A DNA stretch of 38,914 nucleotides, from the NCBI GenBank assembly GCA_002753615.1, contig PEAO01000015.1, forward strand, positions 1 to 38,914. The letters are read 5' to 3'. The stretch is from Magnetococcales bacterium DCbin2. Its GTDB lineage: Bacteria; Pseudomonadota; Magnetococcia; Magnetococcales; UBA8363. The translations under genes and the position numbers were made by a program. Shown here one piece after another: positions 7,321 to 38,882 of this stretch; position 1 is the first letter of the stretch; each line of letters begins with the position of its first letter. Below the pieces are notes generated by a model. The model saw nothing but the letters and a program-made list of their open reading frames with translations, did not search any database and was not told where the DNA came from.

Positions 7321-8610
7321 TTATGGAAACAGCCAAGTACAAATAGCCACCGAAGCGATGACGGCGGCCACATCGGCGACCAGGGCCGCGATCAGAGTAT
7401 GACGCATTTTATTGACCCCCACCGCACCAAAATAGACGGCCAGGACATAAAAAGTGGTTTCGGAGGATCCCTGGATGGTGGAGACCAGCATTCCGGTATA
7501 ACTGTCAGGACCGATGGCGGGATCCTGAAGCAATGAGGCCATGAGTCCATAGGCTCCCGAACCGGACAGGGGGCGTAGCAACGCCATAGGCAAGGCCTCG
7601 GCGGGAAGCCCCCAGGGAGCCGTCCATGGTGCGATGAACGCCACCAGGGCATCCATAGCCAGACTGGCGCGAAACATTCCGATGGCGACCAAAATGGCGA
7701 CCAGATAGGGGATGATGCGTACAGCGACATCAAACCCTTCCCGTGCCCCCTCGACAAACGCCTCATACACCGCCACCCGGCGTATGATTCCAAACAAGAG
7801 TATACTCACCATCAAACCCGGGATGACCCAGGGCGAAATCGAACGGCCAAACAGGATCGTCAGGGGGATCAATCCGGCAAATCCCACCAAGGCCATGGTG
7901 GAAACCCAGGGGGGATAACCTTGATCATCCTCCAAAGGGTCATCCGGCCCCGATGACGCGATGGATGCCGATGGTGCGGCAACGACCTGGGAACCATTTG
8001 ACGGGATGGGAAAAAACCGTTGCAACCCTTTGACCGCAACGATGGCAACAAACGTAGAAAAAAACGTGGCAAACAGGGTGGTCGGGAGGATGGCAGCGGG
8101 ATCTTGGGAATGGACCGAAGCCCGCAAGGCGATTACCGTTGTAGGAAGCAGAGTCACCGAGGAGGTATTGATGGCCAAAAACAAGGCCATGGCATTGGTG
8201 GCGGTCCCTTTGGTGGTGTTGAGGCGATCCAATTCTTGCATGGCGCGGATGCCAAACGGGGTGGCGGCATTGCCCAGGCCCATGGCGTTGGCCGACATGT
8301 TCATGATCATGGCCCCCATGGCGGGATGTTCGGCGGGGACATCGGGGAAAAGGCGCACCATCAACGGACGGATCAACCGCGCCAAAAGGAGCAACACCCC
8401 CCCTTTTTCCGCCACCTTCATCAAACCAAGGAACAGGGTCATCACTCCAATGAGTCCCAAAGCCAGGGTAACGGAGGCGGTCGCACTTTCCACCATGGCC
8501 GTGGTCAAGAGTTCCATGGGGCCTGTGCCATTTTCCGCGACCCAGCCCCACTGGCGATAGCCAGCGGTGAGGAAAGAAACCAGCACCAATACCAAAAACA
8601 GGGTATTCAT
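7321..8610 (-). CDS. SpmA-SpmB fusion, nucleoside-recognition (Gate) domain membrane protein
   Basis: This 429-residue polytopic inner-membrane protein has two homologous Gate/nucleoside-recognition halves. The first (about 40-190) contains the conserved MNMSANAMGLGNAATPFG and NTSSVTLLPTT stretches of SpmA. The second (about 235-425) contains the SpmB-like LRPLSGSGAYGLMASLL and GSSETTFYVLAVYFGAVG stretches. Bacillus has these as two spore-maturation genes; fused forms occur in non-sporulating Gram-negatives, where the substrate is unknown. It overlaps the MEMO-AMMECR1 gene by 4 bp (ATGA), implying co-translation. Confidence 0.9.
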   Translation of the reverse strand: MNTLFLVLVLVSFLTAGYRQWGWVAENGTGPMELLTTAMVESATASVTLALGLIGVMTLFLGLMKVAEKGGVLLLLARLIRPLMVRLFPDVPAEHPAMGAMIMNMSANAMGLGNAATPFGIRAMQELDRLNTTKGTATNAMALFLAINTSSVTLLPTTVIALRASVHSQDPAAILPTTLFATFFSTFVAIVAVKGLQRFFPIPSNGSQVVAAPSASIASSGPDDPLEDDQGYPPWVSTMALVGFAGLIPLTILFGRSISPWVIPGLMVSILLFGIIRRVAVYEAFVEGAREGFDVAVRIIPYLVAILVAIGMFRASLAMDALVAFIAPWTAPWGLPAEALPMALLRPLSGSGAYGLMASLLQDPAIGPDSYTGMLVSTIQGSSETTFYVLAVYFGAVGVNKMRHTLIAALVADVAAVIASVAICTWLFP

Positions 8611-10193
8611 GAATCGGATGCACCATCACCGTTGGAATGGGTCGGGAGACGCAGTGGTGCGGTGTAGGTTTGTGAGGTAAATACCTCAAAGGTTGCCCCC
8701 TGACGCCAAGCATCGGGAGGCAATCCCGCCTTTTGCGCCAAATGGTTCAAGGTTTCCTCCCGACTCCACCCTTGTTCCACCGCCACCTCGGGGAGGAAAA
8801 CCGCCCTTCGTCCCTGTTTACTCAACACCACCCCCTGACGCCCCACCTCAAAATTTTCCCAGGAGGCAATCGGACGCATCGGGCTTAACACACTCACCTC
8901 CAGTTCCATCCCATCGAGTTCGGAACTTGCGACCGGTTTAAAGCGACTGTCCCGGAGGGCGGCATGGGCGGCATTTTCCATGACCGCCTTGTACAGAGGC
9001 TGCACCGGCTGAAGTTGACCGATGCAACCGCGCAACCGTCCGCTCCGTTTCAGGGTGACGAATGCCCCAGAGGGTTCGCCGAAGCGTTCTTGTAATTCTT
9101 CCAGATCGGCCCCTTCTTCCAAAGTTTTGACAGCCCCCTGGCTCTGAACCGCCGCCATCACCGCAGTGATGGCCAGGGTGTGTAACCGTTTCATGTCATT
9201 TTTGGAAAGAACGCCCATTTCTGGTCCCATCTCCGCTAGGTTTTGGGTTGCATGAAAAGTCATGGCGACATAGCTTACCGAATGGGAAAAATCGCCGTTT
9301 TCCGAACCACTGGTCCGGTATTGCACCAGTCGGGGTTCAACCGGATGGCTGATGAGATTTAGCAGCACCATCACCGGACCAAACGCGCAGGCGGTAATGC
9401 CCGATTGTTGTTTATAATCCAGGAACCCTTGGGGATCGCGACTGAGAATTTTGGCCACTGCCCCCATGTCCAATGTTTTCAGATTATCGGCGATTTTGGC
9501 ATCTACGGGGAAAGGTTGATAGTTGAAATGATTGCCATAGTGGGTAAAATCGCCGGAGATGACGAGCAACGTTTTGTCGTCGCACAGGGGGCGCAAGGCT
9601 TCCGCCGCCTGGGCAAATCCCATGGCATCCATCTGCCCCACCAGGAGTGGCAGCAGTTGGAAACCCTGGGCCAGTACCGTTTGTAACAGCGGCAATTGAA
9701 TTTCGATACTGTGTTCCTGGTCATGGACTCCAGGGATGGTGTGAAACATGGGGTGGTTGGCCAACCGCGCCATGGCCCCGGCATCCAAGGGGATTTCCCC
9801 CAGGGGGGTACGAAAATGGGTCGCACGGGGCAAAACCAACCCCATGAAGCTTTTTTGGTGCGATGGTCCCAGGACGATCACCCGCTTGAAGGTTGCCCCT
9901 TTCAGGGGTTGGAGTCCCGCCAGGGCCGTTTCGCCGCTGAAACGATACCCGGCGTGGGGGAGGATGACCGCCCGTATGGGGGGTGATCCGGCTGCTTCGG
10001 TGACAGGTTTTGATCGGCCCTGCAACGTTGCGATCAACGTGGACAGTTCATCCGGTTGACCCGGATACCACGTCCCCGCCAACGCCGGCGGGCGGACCCG
10101 ACGTTCCACCCCCTGACTGGATCCTGTGATGATTGTCGCCATAAGGAACACTCCACAGATGATTGAAATGTTTTTCCACCCGTTCACCGCCAT
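8607..10193 (-). CDS. Exported MEMO (AmmeMemoRadiSam B)-AMMECR1 (AmmeMemoRadiSam A) fusion
   Basis: A 528-residue fusion. A hydrophobic N-terminal segment (about 7-27) looks like a signal peptide. The MEMO domain (about 33-310) keeps the putative metal ligands: His in LPHAGYRFSG, His in EHSIEIQLP and Cys in TACAFGP, plus the GDFTHYG stretch. The AMMECR1 domain (about 350-515) has the diagnostic LRGCIGQLQP motif, and ELEVSVLSP and VFLPEVA strands. MEMO is related to extradiol dioxygenases. These families usually accompany a radical-SAM protein, but none is in this window. The start at 10193 follows GGGGGAG. It overlaps SpmAB downstream by 4 bp. The signal peptide is unusual for these normally cytosolic domains. 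Confidence 0.92.
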   Translation of the reverse strand: MAVNGWKNISIICGVFLMATIITGSSQGVERRVRPPALAGTWYPGQPDELSTLIATLQGRSKPVTEAAGSPPIRAVILPHAGYRFSGETALAGLQPLKGATFKRVIVLGPSHQKSFMGLVLPRATHFRTPLGEIPLDAGAMARLANHPMFHTIPGVHDQEHSIEIQLPLLQTVLAQGFQLLPLLVGQMDAMGFAQAAEALRPLCDDKTLLVISGDFTHYGNHFNYQPFPVDAKIADNLKTLDMGAVAKILSRDPQGFLDYKQQSGITACAFGPVMVLLNLISHPVEPRLVQYRTSGSENGDFSHSVSYVAMTFHATQNLAEMGPEMGVLSKNDMKRLHTLAITAVMAAVQSQGAVKTLEEGADLEELQERFGEPSGAFVTLKRSGRLRGCIGQLQPVQPLYKAVMENAAHAALRDSRFKPVASSELDGMELEVSVLSPMRPIASWENFEVGRQGVVLSKQGRRAVFLPEVAVEQGWSREETLNHLAQKAGLPPDAWRQGATFEVFTSQTYTAPLRLPTHSNGDGASDS

Positions 10194-21261: not shown

Positions 21262-22326
21262 ATGACAAAATTTCTTGACAGATTGACAAACGCCATAACG
21301 GTTGCCAGTTTTTGGGAAGGATTTGTGCTTAAGAAGTATAACTTAAACCCAAAATATCAAAGGAAAAGCGTTTGGGACGATGAGAAACAGTCGTTTTTTA
21401 TCGATAGTATCCTTAAAAATTTCCCAATACCACCCATATTTCTACATCAAAGAATCGATGACAAAACCGGCAAGACATCCTTTGATGTAATCGATGGGAA
21501 ACAACGATTGACATCCATCAAAAGATTTATTGATGGTGAAATCAAAATTTCGAATGAATTTGGCGAAGAACCTTTTAGCGACCCGCAATTATACGGAAAA
21601 TATTTTGGGGATCTTGATTCCAAGGAATTGCTCCCCTATAAACAAAAATTTTGGCGTTATCACATCCCTGTCGAATATATTGATGCTTCCGATCAAAACA
21701 TCGTTGAGGCCATTTTTGACCGACTCAACAGAAACGGTGAACCCCTGAAAAAGCAAGAACTGAGAAACGCACAATACCATAGTACAGAGTTGTTATCGAC
21801 CATCGAAAAACTCTCAGAACATCCCCTGTTTAAAAGTCGTTTCACAGAACAAATGTGCAATAGAATGGAGAATATGGAGTTTATTTCCGAACTATTATTT
21901 GTGACTCTTGAAAATGGAATTTTCGATGCAAAACAAGATGTTATAGATGGTTTTTATAAAAAATACAATAAACATGAAAACTTGGATAGGCTGAAATCAG
22001 CTTTACCATTATTTAACAAATCAACCGATCTCATGGCATCAATCGATTTGGACTATGAAAAATATAGAATATCCGGCATCAGCCATCTCTATGGTTTGTG
22101 GTGCTTTTCTTGGTATTGTGTAAACAATAAAACATCAGTTAGTGTTAATAGTATTAAGAAAAAGCTTAACAGTTTCTTTGATAAATTTTCACAAAGAGAA
22201 TCCGAAGACAGCTCCGTCGCTGAGTATAAATACACATTAAGTGCCAATACCAAATCCAAATCCCAAAGAGAAAATAGATTGCGGTGCCTTCTAGGGGTCT
22301 GTGGTATCATTATAAATGGAAAATAG
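21262..22326 (+). CDS. DUF262 protein (GmrSD N-terminal-like), probable sensor/NTPase of SIR2 pair
   Basis: A 354-residue protein. Residues about 15-200 carry DUF262 hallmarks: NPKYQRKSVW (29-38), DGKQRLTS (Asp78-Ser85, the variant of the ParB-like DGQQR NTP-binding motif), and FDRLNRNGEPLKKQELRNA. DUF262 domains drive GmrSD, BrxU and SspE, where they bind or hydrolyse nucleotides and gate an attached HNH nuclease. Here no DUF1524/HNH region follows; the C-terminal about 150 residues are helical and end in a lysine-rich tail. I infer that the neighbouring SIR2 protein replaces the nuclease as effector. GGAG lies nine bases before the ATG. Confidence 0.88.
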   Translation: MTKFLDRLTNAITVASFWEGFVLKKYNLNPKYQRKSVWDDEKQSFFIDSILKNFPIPPIFLHQRIDDKTGKTSFDVIDGKQRLTSIKRFIDGEIKISNEFGEEPFSDPQLYGKYFGDLDSKELLPYKQKFWRYHIPVEYIDASDQNIVEAIFDRLNRNGEPLKKQELRNAQYHSTELLSTIEKLSEHPLFKSRFTEQMCNRMENMEFISELLFVTLENGIFDAKQDVIDGFYKKYNKHENLDRLKSALPLFNKSTDLMASIDLDYEKYRISGISHLYGLWCFSWYCVNNKTSVSVNSIKKKLNSFFDKFSQRESEDSSVAEYKYTLSANTKSKSQRENRLRCLLGVCGIIINGK

Positions 22327-27799: not shown

Positions 27800-29152
27800 C
27801 TAGATGCCTGACCTGTCATAAGGATTTGTTGGACTGAAAATTGATGGACGGTTCGGATATTTTCGGGTTGGCGAAACGGTTGTCGTCCTTGATCTCATAA
27901 TCGCAGAGATCACCTCTTTGGTGTCGAATAATTGCGGTGGCGGGATGTAAATATTGGGATCCTTTGCGGCTGATTTGCAGGTCGAACCATCCGCGCCGAA
28001 GAGTTTCAGATTTGAAAGCCTTAAATGCCCGCCGTTGGATAATGGGAAATCCTTTTGTGACAGACATTTACCGTATGTTTTAGCCCCTACGAGGAACGTG
28101 TTTCCTGCGGAATCGGCCATGGTTTGGGCGAACACTTCGCCGGCACTTGCGGTATGCGGACCGACCAGAATCGAGATGGGACGGTTGAGAATTTTTTTGC
28201 CAGGGATACTATAATAATATTGGCTATCGCCTGTTTTATCCAAGGTTTTTGCCATAAGTCTGTCCTGGGGAATGAAGAGAGAGGCTGTATCGAGGGCTTC
28301 GTGGTAATCCCCACCCAAACAATATCTGAGATCCAAAAACAGGTGGTGCGTCGTGTGGGTTATGGCCAATATGGCCGCTTCCAGTGCATCACGGGTTTGG
28401 TGGGATGTGAACTTCAGGATTCTGATATAGAACACCGGATGCTGAGGACTGATAACGACATGGTTGACTTCAACGGGTGCGGGAAAGAAGTCTCTTTGGT
28501 GCAACGGAAGAGTCATTTCTTGATTGGAAGCGGGATGAATGAATGAAAACTGGACGGACATGTTGTGAAGGAAGGCGTTATCAATCTGTGCGGCAACGTG
28601 ATCCACAGTGAAGTCAGAGATTTTTTTTCCCTGAATGGCACGCAAGAACTGGGCATCCTCCAAGCCATCGTGAAAGGCTGCCCCCCCTTTGGCGGGTACC
28701 ATGAGTATGTTGTTTTTCCATGGAAGCAGCAATGTTCCCATGGCGCGTGTGGTCTCTTTTTCTAGCAGAGGTGTGATGGATTTGGGCTGGGGTGGGATGT
28801 AGGAGGCGTAACGATCCAGCGATTGGAGGAAAAGATTCAGGTTTTCTATGGTGAGGGGGTCCTCTGTGAGGTGGGAAGGAAACCGTTGGAAGAAGCGTTG
28901 CGCAATGGATTCCCCCGCTGGGATCGTGATTAAATGGCGATCGATGCGTGTGATCAGTTCGAGGGAAGGAATATCCACATTTTGTGAACGGGGGCGTGGG
29001 GGTGTTTCCGAGAAGAAGGTCAGCCCCATGGGGGTTCCCATCGCAGGGGGGACGATCCCAAAAAACATCAAAAAGATGATCAAAAATAGGCCAAAGAGAA
29101 CCATGACCATGGGAATCCATGGGGGATGACCCCCATGGATTCCCGTCATCAT
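27800..29152 (-). CDS. S41-family (CtpA-like) peptidase, membrane-anchored
   Basis: A protein of about 450 residues with an N-terminal membrane anchor (about 16-36), a PDZ-like region (about 135-220) and a tail-specific protease domain. The catalytic Ser336 sits in HTASAGE and Lys362 in TYGKCLSQ, so the Ser/Lys dyad is intact. LFLDLRYCLGGDYHEA corresponds to the conserved 'D.R.N.GG' strand. It probably cleaves C-termini of envelope proteins. The start is uncertain: ATG 29152 lacks a clear Shine-Dalgarno, TTG 29170 is in frame, and a perfect hairpin occupies 29111-29144 inside the early coding region. It is the last gene of a four-gene minus-strand series after two lipoproteins. Confidence 0.85.
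   Translation of the reverse strand: MMTGIHGGHPPWIPMVMVLFGLFLIIFLMFFGIVPPAMGTPMGLTFFSETPPRPRSQNVDIPSLELITRIDRHLITIPAGESIAQRFFQRFPSHLTEDPLTIENLNLFLQSLDRYASYIPPQPKSITPLLEKETTRAMGTLLLPWKNNILMVPAKGGAAFHDGLEDAQFLRAIQGKKISDFTVDHVAAQIDNAFLHNMSVQFSFIHPASNQEMTLPLHQRDFFPAPVEVNHVVISPQHPVFYIRILKFTSHQTRDALEAAILAITHTTHHLFLDLRYCLGGDYHEALDTASLFIPQDRLMAKTLDKTGDSQYYYSIPGKKILNRPISILVGPHTASAGEVFAQTMADSAGNTFLVGAKTYGKCLSQKDFPLSNGGHLRLSNLKLFGADGSTCKSAAKDPNIYIPPPQLFDTKEVISAIMRSRTTTVSPTRKYPNRPSIFSPTNPYDRSGI
29111..29144. repeat. Perfect 15-bp inverted repeat in 5' end of S41 gene
   Basis: Arms 29111-29125 and 29130-29144 are perfectly complementary with a four-base spacer (ATGA on the plus strand). In the S41 mRNA this would form a strong hairpin just after the candidate start codons, and might affect translation or mRNA stability. 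The encoded peptide GGHPPWIP is unremarkable. Confidence 0.6.
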
Positions 29153-29214
29153 TGGACTTTGAACGTGCAATGGATTGCTCTATGACCCGTAAGACTTATC
29201 CAATGGTGCGATCT

Positions 29215-29781
29215 TTATTGGGTTGGATCACGAACGAAAAGGGATTCTCCGCGTTCGCGCAGGATGGCATATTCACGGCGTAGCTGATCAAGCTGTTTTT
29301 CCAATAATTGGATCGTTTCTGGATTTGTGGAACCGGCGTCGCTGTTTTGGAGGGCAGAGGTTTTGTCATTGATTTGTTGCCGCATGGAAGCCAGTTTTTT
29401 GGCCAGTTCCCCCTTTTCCGAGGCTTTGAGATGTTTTTGTTTTTCCATGTTTTGGATTTTTTTGCGCAAATCGGCAAGATTGTCGGAGGTCGTTTGAACC
29501 TGGTCTCTCAGATCTTGCAACATCTCTTCCTGGCTGTGGATGTTTGATTCATAGAGTGCATTTTCTTGGTGGAGCTGGTTTTCCTGTTGTTTTAGCATCT
29601 GAAGCCGATCACGGCGTTGTTGTTCACGAAGATCGTAATCTCCGCCACTTTCGCCTTGGAGTCCACCGAGCAGTCCCCCCTGTCGCGGGTCATTATAGGG
29701 GTTGGGTCCAGAGGCACATCCTGGCAACAGCATTGTGAGCAGACCCAAGAGCAAGAGCGGGATCGAGAGATTTTTTTTCAT
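29215..29781 (-). CDS. Coiled-coil lipoprotein
   Basis: A 188-residue protein with a signal peptide and lipobox LLPGC (Cys22), a short Gly-rich linker, then a long, highly charged coiled coil (about 50-180) dominated by Gln, Glu, Lys and Leu. The start at 29781 has AGGA eleven bases upstream. It lies 60 bp after the glycine-zipper lipoprotein gene and 62 bp before the S41 peptidase gene. It resembles a periplasmic tether or spacer; function unknown. Confidence 0.8.
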   Translation of the reverse strand: MKKNLSIPLLLLGLLTMLLPGCASGPNPYNDPRQGGLLGGLQGESGGDYDLREQQRRDRLQMLKQQENQLHQENALYESNIHSQEEMLQDLRDQVQTTSDNLADLRKKIQNMEKQKHLKASEKGELAKKLASMRQQINDKTSALQNSDAGSTNPETIQLLEKQLDQLRREYAILRERGESLFVRDPTQ

Positions 29782-29841
29782 AGGAAAATGGTCCTGGCTT
29801 GATGGATAACGGGGTGTGACAAAGAGTGCAAGGGCTGGGTA

Positions 29842-30525
29842 TCAACGCCACGCACTGGACATTTCCGCCAATTGCCGATCTTCCTGACCAATGGCATTGA
29901 TTGCGGTGCGCAATTGGGCCATTTCTTGTTGCATGAGGTCTAGTTTTTCACGAGAAACGGAAGCGTCGTGGATCTTTTCTTTTTTGTTCATGCCGGTTTT
30001 GTAGGCATAGACCTCTTTTTTGGCTTGAAGTTCGTCGTCCAAGGCGGCGATGGTCTTATTGAGGTTGTCACGTTGTTTGGTAATGCTGGCCAAGTGATTT
30101 TGGAGATCTTGTTGATTCAACTGCCCCTGTTTTCTTTGTCGTTGCAGGGTTGCGGATTCGGCTGCGATGCGCGCGACGGTTTGTTGGAGTTCTCCCTGAT
30201 AATTTTGGGCGAAAACGCGGTATTCGTTGGTTTGGGCAATTTGTTGATCTAGGTTTTCCTCTTTGGCGATGCGCTGTTGTTTCATTTGTGCGACTTGATC
30301 TCCGACGATACTCCCGGCCAACAAGCCGACGATACCGCCAATGAGTGCCCCTTTACCCCGATCATTATGAGACAATGCCGCCCCGGTTATCGCACCGATG
30401 ACGGCTCCCGCCCCTGCCCCTTGTGCCGTGGTTGCCGTTCGGTCACTCATTTGTGAACCGGTGGCACATCCAGAAAGGATCAATGAAAACACCATGCAAC
30501 TGACAAGCGTTTTGGATTGAGACAT
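29842..30525 (-). CDS. Glycine-zipper lipoprotein with coiled coil
   Basis: A 227-residue protein with lipobox LSGC (Cys20). Residues about 36-78 form a glycine zipper (GAGAGAVIGAITGAALS...GALIGGIVGLLAGSIVG), typical of SlyB-like/YMGG outer-membrane lipoproteins. A charged coiled coil follows to the C-terminus. CGGAG precedes the ATG at 30525. The gene starts 22 bp after the kinase-like gene, so the two are likely co-transcribed; both end in coiled-coil regions predicted to face the periplasm. Confidence 0.85.
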   Translation of the reverse strand: MSQSKTLVSCMVFSLILSGCATGSQMSDRTATTAQGAGAGAVIGAITGAALSHNDRGKGALIGGIVGLLAGSIVGDQVAQMKQQRIAKEENLDQQIAQTNEYRVFAQNYQGELQQTVARIAAESATLQRQRKQGQLNQQDLQNHLASITKQRDNLNKTIAALDDELQAKKEVYAYKTGMNKKEKIHDASVSREKLDLMQQEMAQLRTAINAIGQEDRQLAEMSSAWR

Positions 30526-30547
30526 GCGTTTGACTCCGTTGTGAACG

Positions 30548-32050
30548 TTATGGATAGGTCGCTAGTACTGATTTAAAATTATCGATAATGCTTGATTCCC
30601 AAGAGTTGGATTGTAGCGTGTCGCAGTGTTGTACATGGGTTTCCAGGAGTTTGATCCTCAAGGATACTTTTGGATCACCTCCCTCTTTCTCCAAGTAATC
30701 TTGGTTGGCTTGAGTCACATCTCCGGGTGAGAAAGCGCATAAATATTCTATCCCATTTTTATAGGCGACCAAAAATTGGTCGAGCCTCTCTTTTTCTTTT
30801 TGTAATAGTTCTTCATCTTCTTTGATGTTTATATTATATCTTGTTGATATAGCAGCCAAATCAATACTATTTTTTAGTCTTTTAGCTGCGGTATTTACCC
30901 GGAGTACGGCTTCGCCAACATCTTTTGATGATTTTAATGTCGCGGAAATGGTATTGCGAATTTTTGTCTGTAGATTGATATATTGTTGTTCGGAGTATCT
31001 TCTTTCGAGGAAGATAGCCCCCAATAACATGAGAAATGCCAAAGCCAGCATGAAGCGGTTTCGCCGTAGGAATGTGAGGGGTTTATCGATGGGTTCCACT
31101 GGGAACGGGGGTGGTTCTGGTGGGTTGGGCAGGGCTTTTTTGGGACGGCGTATGGGTAAATTGTGGAGGGTTTGGGTGAACGCTTCGACCCATTCCTGGG
31201 GGGTAGGGCATTGGGTGGGGTTGTGGGTGCCCAGGACCATGAGGCGATCAAACAAACTGATTAATTCAGGAGACAGTGCGTCATAGAGGGGGGCATTTCT
31301 GGGTGGTCGGACGAGGCTGCGATTACGGCGATGGTAGGGGGTCAAACCGTTCATGGTGCGATGATCCAGGGTATTGACGTGGCCTTTGCCGCGCCATTGT
31401 CCCTGGAAAGGGTGATGGCCCTGCATGAGCAGTTTGAAAAGGGTGATCCCCAGGCTGAAAGCGTCCCATGTTTGTAGCTTACGATATTTTTTATCGGAAG
31501 GGAGAGAGGCCCAAAGGCTAGCGGCGTCACTTTCCCGGTCTGACAGATTGTCCACCCCAAGCCAGACCAACTGTCCTTTTGAGGATAACATGAGGTTATC
31601 TTCGATGATTTCGTGCGAAAATATTTCTTTATGGTGTAAATCGACCATGGCCTGGGCCAAGTGTAAACCGGCCTCGTGACAGGAACGCCAATGGTTATCT
31701 TGTTTTGATTTGAGTAGTTTGGAACCAGAGTGGTGGAGGCTTGAGAGTGGGACCAGGCTATAGAATGCCGCCATGGTAAAACCGCAAAAACGTTTTTGTT
31801 CATCGTAAAGGAGGGCTTTGGGCCAGGAAAATTCAAATGTTGTTTCGGAGTGGTCCCGTTCTTCGTTTCCCAGTTCCAGGAAACGTTTGCATTGATTTTC
31901 AATGGCCGCACAATCTTCAAAGATGACTTTGGCGATCACATCGCCACGGGAGGCGATCTTATAGATCCCCTTTTTGGAGCCATGTTCAATGGGGTCGTCA
32001 TCAAAAATAAATATTGGATATCCATTCTGGTCGTATCGTTCTATCGACAT
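30548..32050 (-). CDS. Transmembrane protein-kinase-like protein, probable pseudokinase
   Basis: A 500-residue protein with a kinase fold (about 20-290), Pro-rich juxtamembrane linker, one TM (about 332-348) and a coiled-coil C-terminal region. The beta3 lysine is kept (Lys41 in IAKVI), as is subdomain IX WDAFSLGITLFKLL (Asp196) and GHHPF, as in YegI-like kinases. The catalytic loop is SHEIIEDN (145-152): aligned on Asn152, the catalytic Asp is Glu147 and the Lys is Ile149. The DFG equivalent reads LGVDN (164-168). I therefore call it a probable pseudokinase. The start is ATG 32050 with GAGGG eight bases upstream; TTG 32065 overlaps that site. It leads the lipoprotein/S41 series and is divergent from the 838-residue gene. 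Confidence 0.75.
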   Translation of the reverse strand: MSIERYDQNGYPIFIFDDDPIEHGSKKGIYKIASRGDVIAKVIFEDCAAIENQCKRFLELGNEERDHSETTFEFSWPKALLYDEQKRFCGFTMAAFYSLVPLSSLHHSGSKLLKSKQDNHWRSCHEAGLHLAQAMVDLHHKEIFSHEIIEDNLMLSSKGQLVWLGVDNLSDRESDAASLWASLPSDKKYRKLQTWDAFSLGITLFKLLMQGHHPFQGQWRGKGHVNTLDHRTMNGLTPYHRRNRSLVRPPRNAPLYDALSPELISLFDRLMVLGTHNPTQCPTPQEWVEAFTQTLHNLPIRRPKKALPNPPEPPPFPVEPIDKPLTFLRRNRFMLALAFLMLLGAIFLERRYSEQQYINLQTKIRNTISATLKSSKDVGEAVLRVNTAAKRLKNSIDLAAISTRYNINIKEDEELLQKEKERLDQFLVAYKNGIEYLCAFSPGDVTQANQDYLEKEGGDPKVSLRIKLLETHVQHCDTLQSNSWESSIIDNFKSVLATYP

Positions 32051-32119
32051 GGTGGAAACCCTCAAAGTTGGTAGCGGATGAATGAAGGAGAGATGATTGT
32101 TACGATCATCATGGAGTCG

Positions 32120-32329: not shown

Positions 32330-34846
32330 ATGTGGGTCATGACGCAAGAAGATGAAAGTCCTAAGGACACGGAGGGTGTGGGTCCCAAGTCGCCAGAACC
32401 CACCCAGACCCAGGCTACGAAGTTTCAGACGGGCGCGAAGGAGGAGGGGGATTTGGGTGCTGACTCGCCAAGGGGTCAAGACCAAGAACCTAACGGAGAG
32501 AAACCACCAGAATCGCCCAGTGGGTCGAGGCAGGAAGGGGAGAAAAAAGAGAAAAATACGCAGGATATCAATTCAGGGGATTACAGCAGGAATACTCAAT
32601 TTCAGCAAAGAATCAAAGCTGATTTTGTCTTCTTGCAAAATAAATTAGGGGCCGAAACAGCCGACAATGAACCGGATGCCAAGCAAAAGGCATTGCGTGA
32701 TCATCTGAGTCCATTGGATTTTGGACTTTTGAATCCCGACTGGTCACCCAAAGATTTGGCAAAAATGATGAAATCGATTGCCGAAGAACGCCTGTTGATC
32801 TTGTCGTCATCGGACCAAGGGCGGTCTTTGGATGTTGCGCGTAGAATTCTATCTGGCATTCATCGGGTTTCAGCATACGAGGTTAATTTTTATTCTATCA
32901 ACCGATCCAATTATAATTTGAACGATTTATTGGATCTTGATTATGGTGACAAGGATTCATGTAAAGCGTTGGTCGTGGATAATCATACCGACCCGAATTT
33001 TGTCGGTACCATTTATATGGATAATTTAACCAACGTTGATCAGATCAAGAAAAAATTAAAAGATGGCAATCGTTTTATTCTGTGTCGCGTGCATCCCAAT
33101 CATTTGGAAACCGTAGTTCATAGTGGAAAAAAGATATACATCAATATTTTTGATCTTGATGCCCATGAAACAACAGAGGCACGGCAGTTTTCCGAAGTAA
33201 TCATCAGTCCAAAGCAGAGTCAATCCAAGTCCGACAATCGATTACAAAAGATTGTAGGTTCAGAAACCATGAATCGGGAAATATGTAGAACTGTGTGTTA
33301 TATCGCAGTGCAATTTCCCAATTTATCATTCGAGGAGTTTCAGAGTTTAGTCGCTTCGTTGCTGCCGGATGGTGATATTCCAACCCCGCAGGAAACTTAT
33401 GCAACGCTCCAATGGCCTTCCGAGGGGAAGTCTTATCAAAAGGGGTGGGAGCAGAACATGGAGTCCTATATCAATCATTGCCAGCTTGAATGGAAGCACA
33501 GCAATGGTTTGCGTTTCATGGGTTTCAAAGAGTCTGATTTGGAATTGGAATTTCGGCACTATTTCAATAATGATCAACCGGTTTTTCTGCATAACCTATT
33601 TGCAATCATTCGTCAGCGTCGCCTTCTTCTGGATTTTTCATCCGAGACCGTTGCCGATCATCTGATTCGGATCTACCGCGAACGGATTGCCGCCACTGCG
33701 GCGATCCCGGTCGTCAATCAGTGGCTGATCGATGTACTGCCCACTCGTGATTCAGGCCAGCAGATTTGGGGGCGTTTCAACCAATTGTTAAAGGAATTGA
33801 ATCAGCATCATTTGGAGTCATCCGTCGATTACTTACTCCGATATTTGTCCAAGGAGGCCCCCTATCAGGGGATATTACTGCATTATATCAAGCAATTTGG
33901 GCATTCTGCCAAGATTGATGCAAAAGTGTGGTTTGTTGAATTGCTCAAGGGGTCATCCGATTCATTGCAGGCTGAAGCGTACAATGGGCTGCTCGCCTAT
34001 TTAAAGGGGAATCCCAATAAAATATTTGAGAATTGTCACTATATTTCTTCCCTTGTCCCGGCATTTCATCAGGGTGATGTCGAGATGAGCGTTGTCCAAA
34101 GAATGTTGAGTCAGATTATTTTTGATTTTTCTGCGGCGGTTGTCTTTGGAACCCCGGTTGGGAAGTATGGTCAGAAAACCCTTGGAATTTGTTTTTTCTC
34201 CCGAAAAGATACTGCCGAAAATGAGTTATTGACACTCCTTTCTGGTTGGTTGCTCATGGCGGAATATCATTTCCGTTCGATGGAGAAAGAAGAGCGAATC
34301 AGTCATATCCTGTTATTTCTTGGTTTGGTTGTCGATAGATATGATATTGAGGACGAAATAGATCAATTCATAATTTTTATAGTCTCTCTCATCGAAGAGG
34401 ATGAGACGCATTCTATTTTGAAAGCGATTGATCACCACCAACCCCAGATTGAAAAATCAAATATCTATCTACAGATGTTTGCGTCTGTCCTAGATGTTAC
34501 CAAGGGAAATCCATCATTAATACTGCGTTTTTGTATAGCCGTGATTGTCTATAAATGGTTCCTCATGATCCATGGGTTGGAAAGCTCGGGTTCAAATCTG
34601 TCGAATCAGGCTGAAGTTTTGGAAAAATTTAATCAAATGCTCCATCACATGGTATCGCAGGCCAAGAAAGAGGTTGTACCACTGCGGAATTGGCCTGTGA
34701 CCATGATGAGGGCCATATTTTCAATTATTCAATCCTATCGCCGCATTCCGGTGAATGCGGTGGATTCTGAAAAATTCAGGCAAATGGCGGTACGCGAAAA
34801 ACTTGTCAAACGTCTTATCGCCCATATCAGAGGGGCGATGTCCTAA
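32330..34846 (+). CDS. Large STAND-like protein with degenerate P-loop and INSGDY N-terminal motif
   Basis: An 838-residue protein (or 835 from ATG 32339). Residues 1-75 are disordered, rich in Glu, Pro, Ser and Gly. INSGDYSRNTQ follows at 80-90, a motif shared with the TIR protein. A Rossmann-like NTPase region (about 135-330) has LLILSSSDQGRS (155-166), aligning with hhhh-GxxxxGK[ST] but with Ser159 for Gly and Arg165 for Lys. A Walker-B-like strand ALVVDN (Asp217) and FILCRV follow. The remainder (about 360-838) is helical and superhelix-like. This resembles inactivated STAND NTPases of conflict systems, where a helical sensor array detects a signal. It is 21 bp upstream of the multi-SPFH gene. 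Coding status is certain; the family call is moderate. Confidence 0.7.
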   Translation: MWVMTQEDESPKDTEGVGPKSPEPTQTQATKFQTGAKEEGDLGADSPRGQDQEPNGEKPPESPSGSRQEGEKKEKNTQDINSGDYSRNTQFQQRIKADFVFLQNKLGAETADNEPDAKQKALRDHLSPLDFGLLNPDWSPKDLAKMMKSIAEERLLILSSSDQGRSLDVARRILSGIHRVSAYEVNFYSINRSNYNLNDLLDLDYGDKDSCKALVVDNHTDPNFVGTIYMDNLTNVDQIKKKLKDGNRFILCRVHPNHLETVVHSGKKIYINIFDLDAHETTEARQFSEVIISPKQSQSKSDNRLQKIVGSETMNREICRTVCYIAVQFPNLSFEEFQSLVASLLPDGDIPTPQETYATLQWPSEGKSYQKGWEQNMESYINHCQLEWKHSNGLRFMGFKESDLELEFRHYFNNDQPVFLHNLFAIIRQRRLLLDFSSETVADHLIRIYRERIAATAAIPVVNQWLIDVLPTRDSGQQIWGRFNQLLKELNQHHLESSVDYLLRYLSKEAPYQGILLHYIKQFGHSAKIDAKVWFVELLKGSSDSLQAEAYNGLLAYLKGNPNKIFENCHYISSLVPAFHQGDVEMSVVQRMLSQIIFDFSAAVVFGTPVGKYGQKTLGICFFSRKDTAENELLTLLSGWLLMAEYHFRSMEKEERISHILLFLGLVVDRYDIEDEIDQFIIFIVSLIEEDETHSILKAIDHHQPQIEKSNIYLQMFASVLDVTKGNPSLILRFCIAVIVYKWFLMIHGLESSGSNLSNQAEVLEKFNQMLHHMVSQAKKEVVPLRNWPVTMMRAIFSIIQSYRRIPVNAVDSEKFRQMAVREKLVKRLIAHIRGAMS

Positions 34847-34867: not shown

Positions 34868-37273
34868 ATGATGCTTGAACACCAGATTGGTTCTGTTTTC
34901 AAAAAAGTTTCCAGTCCACCATCGGGTCGTTTGGAACCAAATTGGCGTTTGCTCTATTATAACCCAAAAACAAAGAAAACTTTTACCCCATCTTGGTGGA
35001 ATAGAATAAGAACACCAGAAGTTGAATATTACATTGTCAAAGATGTTTCCGGGTTTACGGATGCTGCGCAGCACCCTGGTCTACAGCTTAAACTCAATGA
35101 TTTTCCCCGCGACCGACTCTTGAGTGTTGTCGTCAGGTATCAGGCCTATTGCATTCCCCATCAGGAATCATCTTTTATAAGCCAATTACAAGATCGCAAT
35201 AATCCCGGCCCTTCATTGGATCTGTTGATTGTGCAATGGATCAGAAGCGTCATTGCCGGAAGAGAAGAATATTATATTAACGGATTCTTCCAATACCAAA
35301 ATGATATGCAAGTGCGTGTCGAAGAAAGGGCTAAGGATTTTGGAATCGCTTTGAAGGTTTATATCAATCCAGAAAAATTTGATCATATTCAAAACACCCA
35401 AAAATTGACGATCGATGACCACGCTGTCGAAGTCCCCGGCTATCCTGTACCGCAGAGGGTAAGTATGAACCTTTCTCTGCAATTAATCCCGGAGAGAAAA
35501 ATCTATGCACTGGTTGAAAATCATCGCATACCCAGTCTTTCGGATTTGATCAAACAGACGGTGTCTCGCGGTGTTCTGGAAAGATATAAACCCTATGATT
35601 TTTTCTCAGACTATCATTCTGGGAAATTGAAAGAATATTTGCAACGGTTATTACTGGAAGCGTTGGCGGAAAGGGGATGGCATGTTGCCAATTGGAGTTT
35701 GACTTTCCTTGAGAAACGGCCTGTCAAAAAATTTGATGATACGCTGACCGCAGTGGTTACCATCAGTCTTCAATTTCCCAAGCCGATTGAGGTTCATAAC
35801 CAAGCGCACGCCCATCTCCAAGATTATGCCAGATATCGGCTGGGGGGGGCACCCGATTTGCAAGAATGGTTTGCCAAAACAATGGATAAAACCATTAAAA
35901 GCGTTTTGATCGATAAACCCTATGAAGAGGTGTTGGCCGGGTTCGATGAAATTAAAGAGCATATCATCCGAGATATGGAGGTGGAAGCCAAAGAGATCGG
36001 TTTCACACTGAAGCCGTTGATGAGTAAAACCGAACTTGGCCCTGAAAAATTATTGGTAGGGTTTGTTCTGGAGCAGCACCAGGCAGAGTTTCAAACCAAT
36101 ACGATGGGGGTTCCGGCCAGCCTTGGTTTCTATATCAACGGACGGCTCCGCAAGCTTGGGGCCGTCAAACATTTGCTGAAATTGGAAGTGAACGAGCCGG
36201 GAATCATTGATAAAACGATGACCGATAAGGTGGTTGAGAGGATTCGAGGGTATCTTCTTGGATTGAATCCTGAAAAGTTTTATATGGAGTTTGAGCAAGC
36301 CAAACAGGAACACGACCGATCGGTCCGCGAAAATTTGCACACCATCATCCAGTCAACACTGGAAAAGTTTGATGCCACAGATCTTGAAATCAGAATACTC
36401 CCGGGGAATACCCACATCACCGAAAAATTGATGACATTGATCGCTGTCCACAGACGGTTCACGGTGAATATATTCCCCCATCAGGGGGAATATCACATTC
36501 CTATTGAAGGTGAATTCCGGGTCAATGGTGTTAACGAAGGGGGGTGGAGTGACTTTCTGCAACGGGATTTCGATTTAGATGCCGTTGGTGCGCAATTATG
36601 TAGCCATATTGCAGCCTCTTTTTCGCAATTCACCGAGGCACAACTTTTGGATGCACTCAAATCTTTGAATAAGTTTCAGCGGAACCTCTGTGAACTGACA
36701 GCCCTTCATTTGAGAAAATTCTATGGCATCGAAGTCGAAGTATTTAATATCAAAAAGCTTCCATCCTATAGCGAAGATTTGAACATTAAGATACAGAAAC
36801 GCAAACGTGACTCCCTTTATGATAAGCGTATTGAACTGATTAATCTACAGGGACAAAAGGATAATCTGGATCGTGAGGCTTTTCTTATTGCACACCGGGA
36901 AAAGTTGAATAATGAAGCCGCACATGTTGAGCTTTACGACAAGAAACTGAAGCAATTGATCGATGAATCAGAAGATTTTACACGGGAGGAATTGGATGCC
37001 AAGGTGTTCAAAGGCGATCGAGATTCCATCTCGCCAACATATTCCGAGTTGCAAACGGGTCTACTCGACTCCGATAAACAATTGGCCGATCAAGTGTCCC
37101 AACCACCACGCGATGATCTCGATACCCCGGAATTGAAAATGTTTCCATGGGACGTTCTGGATGATTCCGCAGCCACGCTCAGGGAAGAAATTGCGCGTAA
37201 ACAAGGCAATGCTCACAATTCCAAAAACGAGAAGAACGACGACGAAAATATTTATGAGGGAGAAACCCTATAA
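34868..37273 (+). CDS. Protein with about five tandem SPFH/band-7-like modules
   Basis: An 801-residue soluble protein without a membrane span. I see five repeats of about 95-100 residues, at about 72-168, 195-285, 290-388, 415-512 and 528-632. Each has beta-strands ('v.v.v.....'), an amphipathic helix (for example WIRSVIA, QTVSRGVLERY, KTIKSVLIDKPYEEV, VERIRGYLLGLNPEKF), then 'l...i......GI.l.v.i', as in DFGIALKVYI, EIGFTLKPLM and FYGIEVEVFNI. This is the SPFH/stomatin pattern. A coiled coil (about 640-705) and acidic, probably disordered tail follow. SPFH proteins oligomerise into membrane-linked rings or cages; five in one chain without an anchor would be unusual. It is co-directional with the degenerate NTPase gene and convergent with the TIR gene. 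Confidence 0.6.
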   Translation: MMLEHQIGSVFKKVSSPPSGRLEPNWRLLYYNPKTKKTFTPSWWNRIRTPEVEYYIVKDVSGFTDAAQHPGLQLKLNDFPRDRLLSVVVRYQAYCIPHQESSFISQLQDRNNPGPSLDLLIVQWIRSVIAGREEYYINGFFQYQNDMQVRVEERAKDFGIALKVYINPEKFDHIQNTQKLTIDDHAVEVPGYPVPQRVSMNLSLQLIPERKIYALVENHRIPSLSDLIKQTVSRGVLERYKPYDFFSDYHSGKLKEYLQRLLLEALAERGWHVANWSLTFLEKRPVKKFDDTLTAVVTISLQFPKPIEVHNQAHAHLQDYARYRLGGAPDLQEWFAKTMDKTIKSVLIDKPYEEVLAGFDEIKEHIIRDMEVEAKEIGFTLKPLMSKTELGPEKLLVGFVLEQHQAEFQTNTMGVPASLGFYINGRLRKLGAVKHLLKLEVNEPGIIDKTMTDKVVERIRGYLLGLNPEKFYMEFEQAKQEHDRSVRENLHTIIQSTLEKFDATDLEIRILPGNTHITEKLMTLIAVHRRFTVNIFPHQGEYHIPIEGEFRVNGVNEGGWSDFLQRDFDLDAVGAQLCSHIAASFSQFTEAQLLDALKSLNKFQRNLCELTALHLRKFYGIEVEVFNIKKLPSYSEDLNIKIQKRKRDSLYDKRIELINLQGQKDNLDREAFLIAHREKLNNEAAHVELYDKKLKQLIDESEDFTREELDAKVFKGDRDSISPTYSELQTGLLDSDKQLADQVSQPPRDDLDTPELKMFPWDVLDDSAATLREEIARKQGNAHNSKNEKNDDENIYEGETL

Positions 37274-37290: not shown

Positions 37291-37325
37291 GGGAGAATAA
37301 GAAATTTGGAATTTCTTACTCTCCC
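37291..37325. terminator. Bidirectional terminator-like hairpin between convergent genes
   Basis: Arms 37291-37306 and 37310-37325 pair over 16 bp with a single mismatch and a three-base loop. The hairpin starts 18 bp after the multi-SPFH stop and includes the TIR stop codon on the other strand, so it can end both convergent transcripts. There is no long T-run, so rho-independent strength is uncertain. Confidence 0.6.
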
Positions 37326-37846
37326 TGACGGCAGGCTTCCAACAATTTCTTATATTCCTCCAGTGCATTGGCCCGAAGGTCGATTTGCTTGTATTGGGCC
37401 AGCATATCTGGCAGTTTGCAACTTTGATATAAAACAGGGATAAATCGGCGTGTGCGATTGGCGGGATCACGAAACATGGCTGCCCCCCGTTCTACCTGGG
37501 TCCACTCTGACTGGAGATACTGAGGCGAGAAAATGGCTAAAAAGATCCGGGATTTTTCCAGTCCATTTTCAATGGCTGCGGGAATAGGATCTCCAGGTTT
37601 GAGTATCCACTCGTCAAACCAGATTTTCAAGCCGTCGGCCAAAAGTTTTTCGGCCAACGGTTGTGCAAACTTTCGATCCTGGCTGGAATAACTGATAAAA
37701 ACATCATAACCTTCTGAGGGAGACCAACCTGTCGGTGGACGGCAAACGGGATGGGGCTGTTCTGGTGCAACGCCAGGATGGTGATGAACGGTCACCTTTT
37801 TCTGAATGTTATTGCAATAGTCCCCAGAATTGATGGTTTGCGTCAT
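37316..37846 (-). CDS. TIR-domain protein with INSGDY N-terminal motif, putative NADase effector
   Basis: A 176-residue protein. Residues 5-15 read INSGDYCNNIQ, matching the motif in the 838-residue protein. A His/Pro-rich linker (20-45) leads to a TIR domain (about 46-170): YDVFISYSSQD in strand A, a BB loop at FDEWILKPGDPI, SRIFLAIFSPQYLQSEW, and Glu119 in WTQVE at the catalytic-Glu position of NAD-cleaving TIRs. All landmarks are intact. Bacterial TIRs cleave NAD+ or make cyclic-ADPR signals when clustered by a receptor. The shared motif suggests the neighbouring NTPase-like protein is that receptor (inference). Its own promoter lies to the right. Confidence 0.93.
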   Translation of the reverse strand: MTQTINSGDYCNNIQKKVTVHHHPGVAPEQPHPVCRPPTGWSPSEGYDVFISYSSQDRKFAQPLAEKLLADGLKIWFDEWILKPGDPIPAAIENGLEKSRIFLAIFSPQYLQSEWTQVERGAAMFRDPANRTRRFIPVLYQSCKLPDMLAQYKQIDLRANALEEYKKLLEACRQGE

Positions 37847-37993: not shown

Positions 37994-38644
37994 TTATCGG
38001 GTCAATCGGATCGGTCCTTCGTAGATGGCCAGGGTGGAGATTTGTTTGATGGAGAGCATGGGGCCACCCAGGCCGGCATAATCAAGCTTGCTGTCGCCGG
38101 AATTTTCTTTTTTATCCAGGTTGCCATAGTCCATTTTGCGCATGACCGCCCCATCGAGTTTGGCCTTGCGTAGGTCGGTTTGCCGGATGGCGGCGCGGGA
38201 GAAATCGGCCCCCTGGAGTCTGGCACCGTACAGGTTGGCGAGGCTCAGTTGCGATGCGGTGAGGCGGGTGTTTTGCAACCAAGCGTATTGCAATCGCGCC
38301 ATGCTTAAATCGGCGTTGGTCAGATTGGCCCCTGAGAGATCGGCACTGTTGAGTGAGGCCCGCGCCAGATGGGCGCGGGTCAGGTTGGCCATCACCAGAT
38401 TGGCATCTTTAAGGTTGGCGCGCCACAGGTTGGCACCCGTCAGATTGGCCTCCCGAAGATTGGCGGCACGTAAATCGGCTTCGGCCAGATAAACCCCCGA
38501 AAGATCGGCCTCCGATAAATCACATTGGCGGCATTGATTGGTCTGGACCAGTTTGGTCAGATCATCGGCCCGAAATGCCCAGGAATCTCCGCCAAACCAT
38601 CCCAGTGTCCCGATGATGGTTGCCATTCCGATGATCCGTTTCAT
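37994..38644 (-). CDS. Exported pentapeptide-repeat protein
   Basis: A protein of about 216 residues from ATG 38644, which has GGAGGAGA just upstream; a longer frame to 38725 is less likely. A signal-peptide-like segment covers residues 1-24. CRQC-DLSEADLSG (about residue 36 onward) introduces some 20-25 tandem A(D/N)LxxA pentapeptides, which fold as a right-handed quadrilateral beta-helix. A short non-repetitive tail ends the protein. Pentapeptide proteins include DNA-gyrase mimics, but an exported one with CxxC at the start is more likely an envelope protein; its role is unknown. Confidence 0.87.
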   Translation of the reverse strand: MKRIIGMATIIGTLGWFGGDSWAFRADDLTKLVQTNQCRQCDLSEADLSGVYLAEADLRAANLREANLTGANLWRANLKDANLVMANLTRAHLARASLNSADLSGANLTNADLSMARLQYAWLQNTRLTASQLSLANLYGARLQGADFSRAAIRQTDLRKAKLDGAVMRKMDYGNLDKKENSGDSKLDYAGLGGPMLSIKQISTLAIYEGPIRLTR

Positions 38645-38882
38645 GGTCTCCTCCGCAATAAAACTGAGCTGTTCAGATCGACGGGGTGATCCCACGATCC
38701 CAAGGACAAAAGAAAAGTGCTGCATCCCTTCATCTTGTCATGTCCCAGGGAGAAGGGTCACTGTGTACCTGGAGAATTTGTCGGCAATGGGGCGTTCTGG
38801 GTGAATGAAAAAATGGAAAAGGGGACATTTTGATGGGTTCGTTATGGGGAGGGGAGAGATAAAAAAATTCCGTGGGCGTTTT

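What the first reader, a model, noticed from the sequence alone, without database searches (positions are those of the whole stretch)
34868..37273. Candidate poly-SPFH protein: five band-7-like modules in one chain
Five successive segments of about 95-100 residues each end in a long amphipathic helix followed by 'GI-x-hydrophobic' and a beta-strand, the SPFH layout. Known SPFH proteins carry one such domain and make rings by oligomerisation. A soluble pentamer-in-one-chain with coiled coil and acidic tail would be a distinct scaffold, here placed in a TIR-containing locus.
Basis: inference. Interest (0 to 1): 0.72.

Follow-up and report, generated by a model that had tools for sequence, protein, structure and literature searches.

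The report
Five-module SPFH scaffold beside NLR-like protein
A Magnetococcales bacterium encodes a soluble protein in which the ring-forming SPFH fold, normally present once per chain, appears to be repeated five times; it is inherited only together with an NLR-like protein whose N-terminal tag matches a tag on a neighbouring TIR enzyme, which suggests an unreported immune-type scaffold.

Summary
The 801-aa ORF is real, conserved and probably a poly-SPFH protein. A model built from four homologues shows five β-β-α-α-α-α-β modules, a long helix and an acidic tail. PDB hits with that model are almost all SPFH (HflK/C, prohibitin, stomatin, flotillin, vault). Independently, profile comparison finds four matches to the SPFH helix-strand core; column shuffles never give a comparable set. 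Modules 1 and 3 are secure, 5 is moderate, 4 is weak, and 2 rests on the model. There is no membrane segment.

The gene lies 21 nt behind an 838-aa protein found in exactly the same four of 399 Pseudomonadota genomes. That partner is NLR-like: a degenerate, P-loop-less STAND/AAA+ domain (top fold hit Avs4) behind a disordered N-terminus. A short motif there matches the N-terminus of the neighbouring TIR protein. A second locus has a different TIR and a different, equally matched motif. Three loci also carry a pseudokinase and lipoproteins.

Best reading: a scaffold for an inactive-STAND receptor that signals to a TIR effector by amyloid-like templating. The architecture is well supported; the function is inferred.

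The parts
34868..37273 (+). Poly-SPFH protein, 801 aa, no transmembrane segment
   Evidence: ORF; homologues; fold; hydropathy maximum 0.9
34868..35062 (+). N-terminal beta-rich region (residues 1-65), possibly SPFH1-like, unassigned
   Evidence: strands at 11-58 in low-confidence model
35063..35371 (+). SPFH module 1 (residues 66-168)
   Evidence: model; hhalign score 27.7 vs shuffle max 19.2
35396..35707 (+). SPFH module 2 (residues 177-280)
   Evidence: best-modelled module (pLDDT about 64-89); not detected by profile (12.6 vs shuffle max 18.9)
35732..36031 (+). SPFH module 3 (residues 289-388)
   Evidence: model; hhalign 38.1 vs shuffle max 17.4; Pfam Band_7 stretch 323-381
36059..36403 (+). 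SPFH module 4 (residues 398-512), longest, weakest
   Evidence: model at low confidence; hhalign 18.9 vs shuffle max 20.8
36449..36757 (+). SPFH module 5 (residues 528-630)
   Evidence: model; hhalign 20.5 alone (shuffle max 19.7), 28.7 with the following helix
36767..36967 (+). Long helix (634-700), in the position of the coiled coil that follows SPFH2 in HflK/C and prohibitins
   Evidence: DSSP of model; profile match runs from module 5 into it
37004..37270 (+). Disordered acidic C-terminal tail (713-801, net charge -11)
   Evidence: pLDDT < 50 for most of it; charge count
32330..34846 (+). Partner: 838-aa NLR-like protein, disordered N-terminus, degenerate STAND domain, C-terminal region helical by inference
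   Evidence: found in the same four genomes as the SPFH gene, always directly upstream; fold
32804..32827 (+). Degenerate Walker A (SSSDQGRS, residues 159-166) of the partner
   Evidence: alignment A2: no P-loop Lys at the aligned position in any of the four homologues
32558..32599 (+). Partner copy of the shared motif TQDINSGDYSRNTQ
   Evidence: local alignment with TIR N-terminus, p about 0.001 by shuffling; best of 242 other open frames
37802..37843 (-). TIR copy of the shared motif TQTINSGDYCNNIQ
37316..37846 (-). TIR-domain protein, 176 aa; SEWTQVE holds the putative catalytic Glu
   Evidence: Pfam TIR_2 E 6e-32; catalytic assignment from general knowledge of TIR NADases
30548..32065 (-). 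Membrane-spanning pseudokinase-like protein, divergent from the partner; HEIIEDN in place of HRDxxxxN
   Evidence: Pkinase E 0.0085; of 48 Magnetococcia genomes only in three, each beside this system
29842..30525 (-). Glycine-zipper lipoprotein, conserved in the G034 cassette
   Evidence: Pfam; 30% identity to L006 copy
29215..29781 (-). Coiled-coil lipoprotein, conserved in the G034 cassette
   Evidence: 32% identity to L006 copy
27800..29170 (-). S41-family protease with N-terminal hydrophobic segment, conserved in the G034 cassette
   Evidence: Peptidase_S41 E 9e-23; 32% identity to L006 copy; hydropathy

Best explanation
The gene encodes a soluble, probably cytoplasmic scaffold made of five tandem SPFH cores (the ~105-residue alpha/beta stomatin-type core), followed by the coiled-coil helix and an acidic tail. 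It works as an obligate partner of the NLR-like protein encoded just upstream, which has an inactive STAND domain. I propose that the SPFH modules pack laterally as SPFH subunits do in HflK/C and prohibitin rings, so that one chain supplies an arc and a few chains close a ring or dome. This assembly holds the inactive-STAND receptor, which cannot drive its own assembly by ATP, in a poised or clustered state. On a trigger, possibly relayed by the linked membrane pseudokinase, lipoproteins and S41 protease, the receptors' N-terminal motifs come together, nucleate an amyloid-like fibre, template the matching motif on the TIR protein, and so oligomerise and activate the TIR NADase, giving abortive defence. 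Supported here: SPFH repeats (four or five), lack of a membrane anchor, strict co-inheritance with the partner, the STAND-like fold without P-loop, and the pair-specific motif shared with the TIR. Inferred: ring or dome assembly, amyloid templating, NAD depletion, the trigger and an antiviral purpose.
For: SPFH repeats. Two-gene unit: SPFH and partner found in exactly the same 4 of 399 genomes, adjacent and co-oriented in all four, 21 nt apart in the window. Partner fold: best hit Avs4 (E 1.7e-4, prob 1.00), also EfAvs5, the rest almost all AAA+; Walker A degenerate in all four. Motif pairing: window TIR/partner p about 0.001 and L007 TIR/partner p about 0.002, but mismatched pairs (window TIR with L007 partner and the reverse) p about 0.55-0.59; in each locus the partner is the best-scoring other open frame. 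The two TIR proteins are divergent (25% over 106 aa, 176 vs 240 aa, different positions), so effector and motif appear to have changed together. Precedents: amyloid motifs shared by adjacent NLR and effector genes, occasionally TIR (PMC7889193); inactive STAND proteins and Band7 superstructure domains in bacterial conflict systems (PMC7159879).
Against: Only four members are known, from one order, so alignments are shallow and the models have moderate confidence (pLDDT about 61). Whole-chain geometry is unresolved (pTM 0.30). Modules 2 and 4 are not independently recognised by profile. The G034 locus has SPFH, partner and the envelope genes but no TIR or recognised matching effector nearby, so the TIR is not universal. 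The L005 motif pair is weaker (p about 0.09). No experiment shows defence, and the shared motifs were not tested for amyloid formation or against the BASS models.
Confidence: 0.5

Rival explanations
1. Envelope scaffold, not immunity: the poly-SPFH protein and its partner organise a membrane or envelope maintenance complex with the pseudokinase, two lipoproteins and the S41 protease, by analogy with HflK/C-FtsH or SPFH-NfeD units; the TIR gene is a neighbour of convenience.
For: Pseudokinase, both lipoproteins and (window, G034) the S41 protease are conserved near the pair at 27-32% identity between two families although gene order is rearranged; the pseudokinase occurs only beside this system; G034 lacks the TIR.
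Against: G145 keeps partner, SPFH and a TIR but none of the envelope genes in about 28 kb examined. TIR present in three of four with motif matched to its own partner. The SPFH protein has no membrane segment. The partner resembles Avs4.
Confidence: 0.22
2. The SPFH protein is the sensor or negative regulator rather than the assembly platform: its modules bind membrane or phage structures, or hold the receptor off until displaced.
For: Obligate pairing with an ATPase-dead receptor means recognition or switching must come from somewhere; nonsynonymous changes are fairly common between close homologues (113 vs 94 synonymous codon changes).
Against: No specific sequence evidence; SPFH domains elsewhere mainly assemble and scaffold.
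Confidence: 0.18
3. Vault-like column instead of lateral arc: modules stack along the chain and many chains pack side by side into a barrel.
For: Linkers between modules are about 8-15 residues; the major vault protein, which stacks repeats below an SPFH-like shoulder, is among the fold hits (9bw5).
Against: Vault repeats are not SPFH; the model cannot distinguish geometry (pTM 0.30).
Confidence: 0.1
4. Only three or so true SPFH cores; the other repeats are unrelated alpha/beta segments that look periodic in a weak model.
For: Profiles recognise modules 1, 3 and 5 but not 2, and 4 only weakly.
Against: The same element order occurs five times with spacing 109-130 aa; most module-module pairings align near register although weakly; module 2 has the best model confidence and almost every fold hit is SPFH.
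Confidence: 0.12

Closest known systems
HflK/HflC, prohibitin, stomatin (SPFH/Band 7 superfamily)
   Same: alpha/beta SPFH core and following long helix; profile and fold matches
   Different: five cores in one chain instead of one, no membrane anchor, acidic tail, too divergent to pass the Band_7 cut-off; the 66 ordinary SPFH hits in 21 related genomes all appear as single-domain ORFs
Major vault protein
   Same: soluble multi-repeat chain related to SPFH; weak fold hit
   Different: MVP has one SPFH-like shoulder plus repeats of another fold (general knowledge); no sequence match in the PDB search
Avs / STAND NTPases (for the partner)
   Same: best fold match is Avs4, also EfAvs5; STAND-type core followed by a long C-terminal region
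   Different: P-loop destroyed in all four; no fused nuclease or SIR2; effector supplied in trans
iSTAND ternary conflict systems (PMC7159879)
   Same: inactive STAND component; TIR and superstructure-forming domains in the same system type
   Different: no MoxR or vWA genes seen in the loci; scaffold is a separate five-SPFH protein
Bacterial amyloid signalling (BASS) NLR-effector pairs (PMC7889193)
   Same: short motif shared by the N-terminus of an NLR-like protein and an adjacent effector
   Different: motif not shown to belong to BASS1-10; receptor is ATPase-dead; extra SPFH scaffold; motif at the N-terminus of a TIR

Membership tests
SPFH / Band 7 superfamily | SPFH fold | tested here: met
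   PDB and viral fold searches return almost only SPFH; profile matches above shuffles
SPFH / Band 7 superfamily | passes the curated Band_7 score | tested here: not met
   best 23.4 bits against 23.6
SPFH / Band 7 superfamily | N-terminal membrane anchor | tested here: not met
   maximum 19-residue hydropathy 0.9 in the window, at most 1.28 in homologues
SPFH / Band 7 superfamily | coiled-coil helix directly after the SPFH domain | tested here: met
   67-residue helix 634-700 after module 5 in the model; heptads not analysed
SPFH / Band 7 superfamily | ring or dome oligomer | not testable with these tools
   needs biochemistry or EM
STAND NTPases (partner) | AAA+/STAND fold | tested here: met
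   Avs4 top hit, AAA+ proteins follow; model moderate, pLDDT 61
STAND NTPases (partner) | intact Walker A | tested here: not met
   SSSDQGRS, AGPDQECLRD, QCSVAEIAMQ at the aligned position
BASS amyloid signalling pairs | same motif in adjacent receptor and effector genes | tested here: met
   two loci, pair-specific; third pair weak
BASS amyloid signalling pairs | match to a BASS1-10 model, amyloid formation | not tested
   models not on hand; no experiment
iSTAND ternary systems | MoxR ATPase plus vWA protein | tested here: not met
   none recognised among the neighbouring genes scanned or read in the window, L005, L006, L007
Thoeris | ThsA next to ThsB TIR | tested here: not met
   TIRs resemble ThsB weakly but no ThsA hit among the neighbours scanned

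The most novel reading that the evidence does not exclude
A previously undescribed signalosome: a single-chain SPFH arc closes into a cytosolic ring or dome that takes over the oligomerising role that ATP normally plays in NLRs, assembling an ATPase-dead STAND receptor whose amyloid-like motif seeds a cognate TIR effector.
Probability: 0.25. Interest if true: 0.85.

Novelty: new variant of a known kind. Interest (0 to 1): 0.62.

Why it matters
SPFH proteins are scaffolds that reach their rings by bringing together many one-domain subunits. A natural chain with five cores would show how SPFH units pack and offers a small, soluble, tractable scaffold. Its strict pairing with an NLR-like receptor that has lost its ATPase would give one testable answer to how inactive STAND proteins assemble, and would tie SPFH scaffolds to TIR signalling in bacteria. 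In the held literature, searches for tandem or multiple SPFH domains returned only two papers; one describes the normal SPFH1-SPFH2 pair of erlins and the other concerns ERLIN2 disease.

Tried and rejected
Direct sequence searches of the PDB with one sequence or the profile gave nothing for the SPFH protein. For the partner they gave only chance-like hits to glucocorticoid receptor. NCBIfam, PHROGs and PADLOC gave no credible model match for either large protein; a stray Cas11e hit on one partner homologue was judged chance. Self-comparison of the profile found no significant internal repeat: the modules are too diverged and the alignment too shallow, so the repeat is seen through SPFH and the model instead. 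A narrow sequence HMM of the SPFH core did not separate single sequences from shuffles clearly. No relatives on viral contigs, on plasmids, or beyond Magnetococcia in the 399 sampled Pseudomonadota genomes. A hit to the partner in G083 (E 0.0027 for one genome, 399 searched) was treated as chance. The other TIR in G034 has no N-terminal extension and was rejected as the missing effector. Other Magnetococcia TIR proteins inspected lack the motif. The CAGE complex was considered and dropped: its paper never mentions SPFH.

Full report
Setting. The window is one whole contig (C11) of a draft genome about 78% complete. Its nearest relative is a Magnetococcales metagenome-assembled genome, JADGCQ010000054, and kin groups place it in the class sampled (48 genomes). 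The ORF 34868-37273 (+) has 801 codons and three homologues: G026/L005 (86%), G034/L006 (31%) and G145/L007 (about 20%). A profile search of 399 Pseudomonadota genomes found only these four. No relatives were found on viral contigs or plasmids.

Is it SPFH? Three lines agree. (1) Pfam: Band_7 is the only family hit by all four homologues (best E 7e-5; the window copy 0.023, at 323-381; the L006 copy at 609-695), always under the curated cut-off. (2) Profile-profile alignment of the four homologues against 53 SPFH proteins from Magnetococcia gave, unprompted, four separate matches on the same core region: residues 302-393, 573-710, 83-158 and 439-541 (scores 37.0, 28.7, 25.9, 18.9). In 60 column-shuffled or reversed controls the best score averaged 17.3 (SD 3.1, max 28.1), the second-best never passed 20.1 and the third never passed 17.1. 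Taken one by one, modules 1 (27.7) and 3 (38.1) are clear of their shuffles, module 5 (20.5) is just above, module 4 (18.9) is inside the tail and module 2 (12.6) is undetected. (3) The AlphaFold2 model (four sequences, mean pLDDT 60.6, pTM 0.30) shows the order β-β-α-α-α-α-β five times, then a 67-residue helix and a disordered tail. Of its first 45 PDB matches nearly all are SPFH proteins, including the 106-residue stomatin core 8gn9 at TMt 0.74 and 3.2 Å; the viral library gives Band 7 proteins as well. The model is not good enough to fix how the modules are arranged.

Anatomy. Modules at residues 66-168, 177-280, 289-388, 398-512 and 528-630, spacing 111, 112, 109 and 130 aa; a β-rich N-terminus; helix 634-700; tail 713-801 with net charge -11; no membrane-spanning stretch. 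Each module corresponds to the α/β core (SPFH2-like) of stomatin and HflK/C, and module 5 plus the helix reproduces the usual SPFH2 to coiled-coil order.

The partner. The gene 21 nt upstream encodes 838 aa. Its homologues are found in exactly the same four genomes and directly precede the SPFH gene in all four. Residues 105-405 model as an α/β domain (pLDDT 61, pTM 0.50) whose best PDB match is the phage-sensing STAND protein Avs4 (E 1.7e-4), with EfAvs5 and many AAA+ proteins following. The Walker A position reads SSSDQGRS here and is unrecognisable in the distant homologues, so this is an inactive STAND-like protein. That the rest is helical repeats is inference from sequence.

The TIR link. 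A 176-aa TIR protein (TIR_2 E 6e-32) lies convergently downstream. Its 45-residue N-terminal extension carries TQTINSGDYCNNIQ, matching TQDINSGDYSRNTQ in the disordered N-terminus of the partner (shuffle p about 0.001). In L007 a different, 240-aa TIR protein is encoded upstream on the same strand and carries NIIQRGQATAPGSVVIQAGGAVRV, matching NIIQKGTATGDRPQIFQASKNINI of its own partner (p about 0.002). Mismatched pairs show nothing (p about 0.55-0.59). In each locus the partner is the best-scoring other open frame. The window copies differ at 13 of 42 bases, so this is not a fresh DNA duplication. The absolute score is modest: a wrong-frame ORF in another locus reached 49 against 51. Pair-specific motifs in adjacent receptor and effector genes are the signature by which bacterial amyloid signalling was recognised (PMC7889193); membership in a named BASS family was not tested.

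The wider cassette. A pseudokinase-like membrane protein, a glycine-zipper lipoprotein and a second lipoprotein adjoin the pair in the window, L005 and L006, and an S41 protease does so in the window and L006; they are 27-32% identical between window and L006 despite rearrangement (L005 is cut by the end of its contig). Among 48 Magnetococcia genomes the pseudokinase is found only beside this system. G145 has partner, SPFH and TIR without them in the stretch examined. The core is therefore partner plus SPFH; TIR (three of four) and the envelope genes (three of four) are attachments that may supply output and input.

Mechanism. Shown: architecture, co-inheritance, lost P-loop, paired motifs. 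Inferred: SPFH modules assemble the receptor, the motifs polymerise and recruit TIR, and TIR consumes NAD. The main rival is an envelope scaffold with TIR as bystander; the paired motifs and G145 argue against it, while the TIR-less G034 locus argues for it.

Known or new. Band7 domains are already described as superstructure-forming parts of bacterial conflict systems, and inactive STAND proteins define the iSTAND systems (PMC7159879), but those need MoxR and vWA genes that were not seen here. Searches of the held literature for tandem, double or multiple SPFH domains returned only two papers, one on the normal SPFH1/SPFH2 pair of erlins and one on ERLIN2 disease. I therefore rate it a new variant of a known kind: known fold, new architecture, new combination.

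Noticed in passing
window 37802-37843 (-) and 32558-32599 (+): Short motif shared by the TIR protein and the NLR-like protein; L007 has a different but also paired motif, as if effector and tag were exchanged together.
   Followed up: yes
window 27800-32065 (-): S41 protease, two lipoproteins and a membrane pseudokinase, conserved with G034 (L006) although rearranged; the pseudokinase is found only next to this system in 48 Magnetococcia genomes.
   Followed up: partly
window 21262-22326 (+): GmrSD_N (DUF262) protein, a type IV restriction-like gene, on the same contig; possible defence-island context.
   Followed up: no
window 8607-10193 (-); L006 1-873: A Memo-like protein (fused to AMMECR1 in the window) lies within some tens of kb of the system in both G000 and G034, hinting at a shared chromosomal neighbourhood.
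   Followed up: no
L053: Another Magnetococcia TIR protein (G053) is followed by a MoxR-like ATPase with an intact P-loop, possibly a different conflict system.
   Followed up: no
window 37994-38725 (-): Pentapeptide-repeat protein beside the TIR gene, 97% conserved in L005 (more than the system genes).
   Followed up: no
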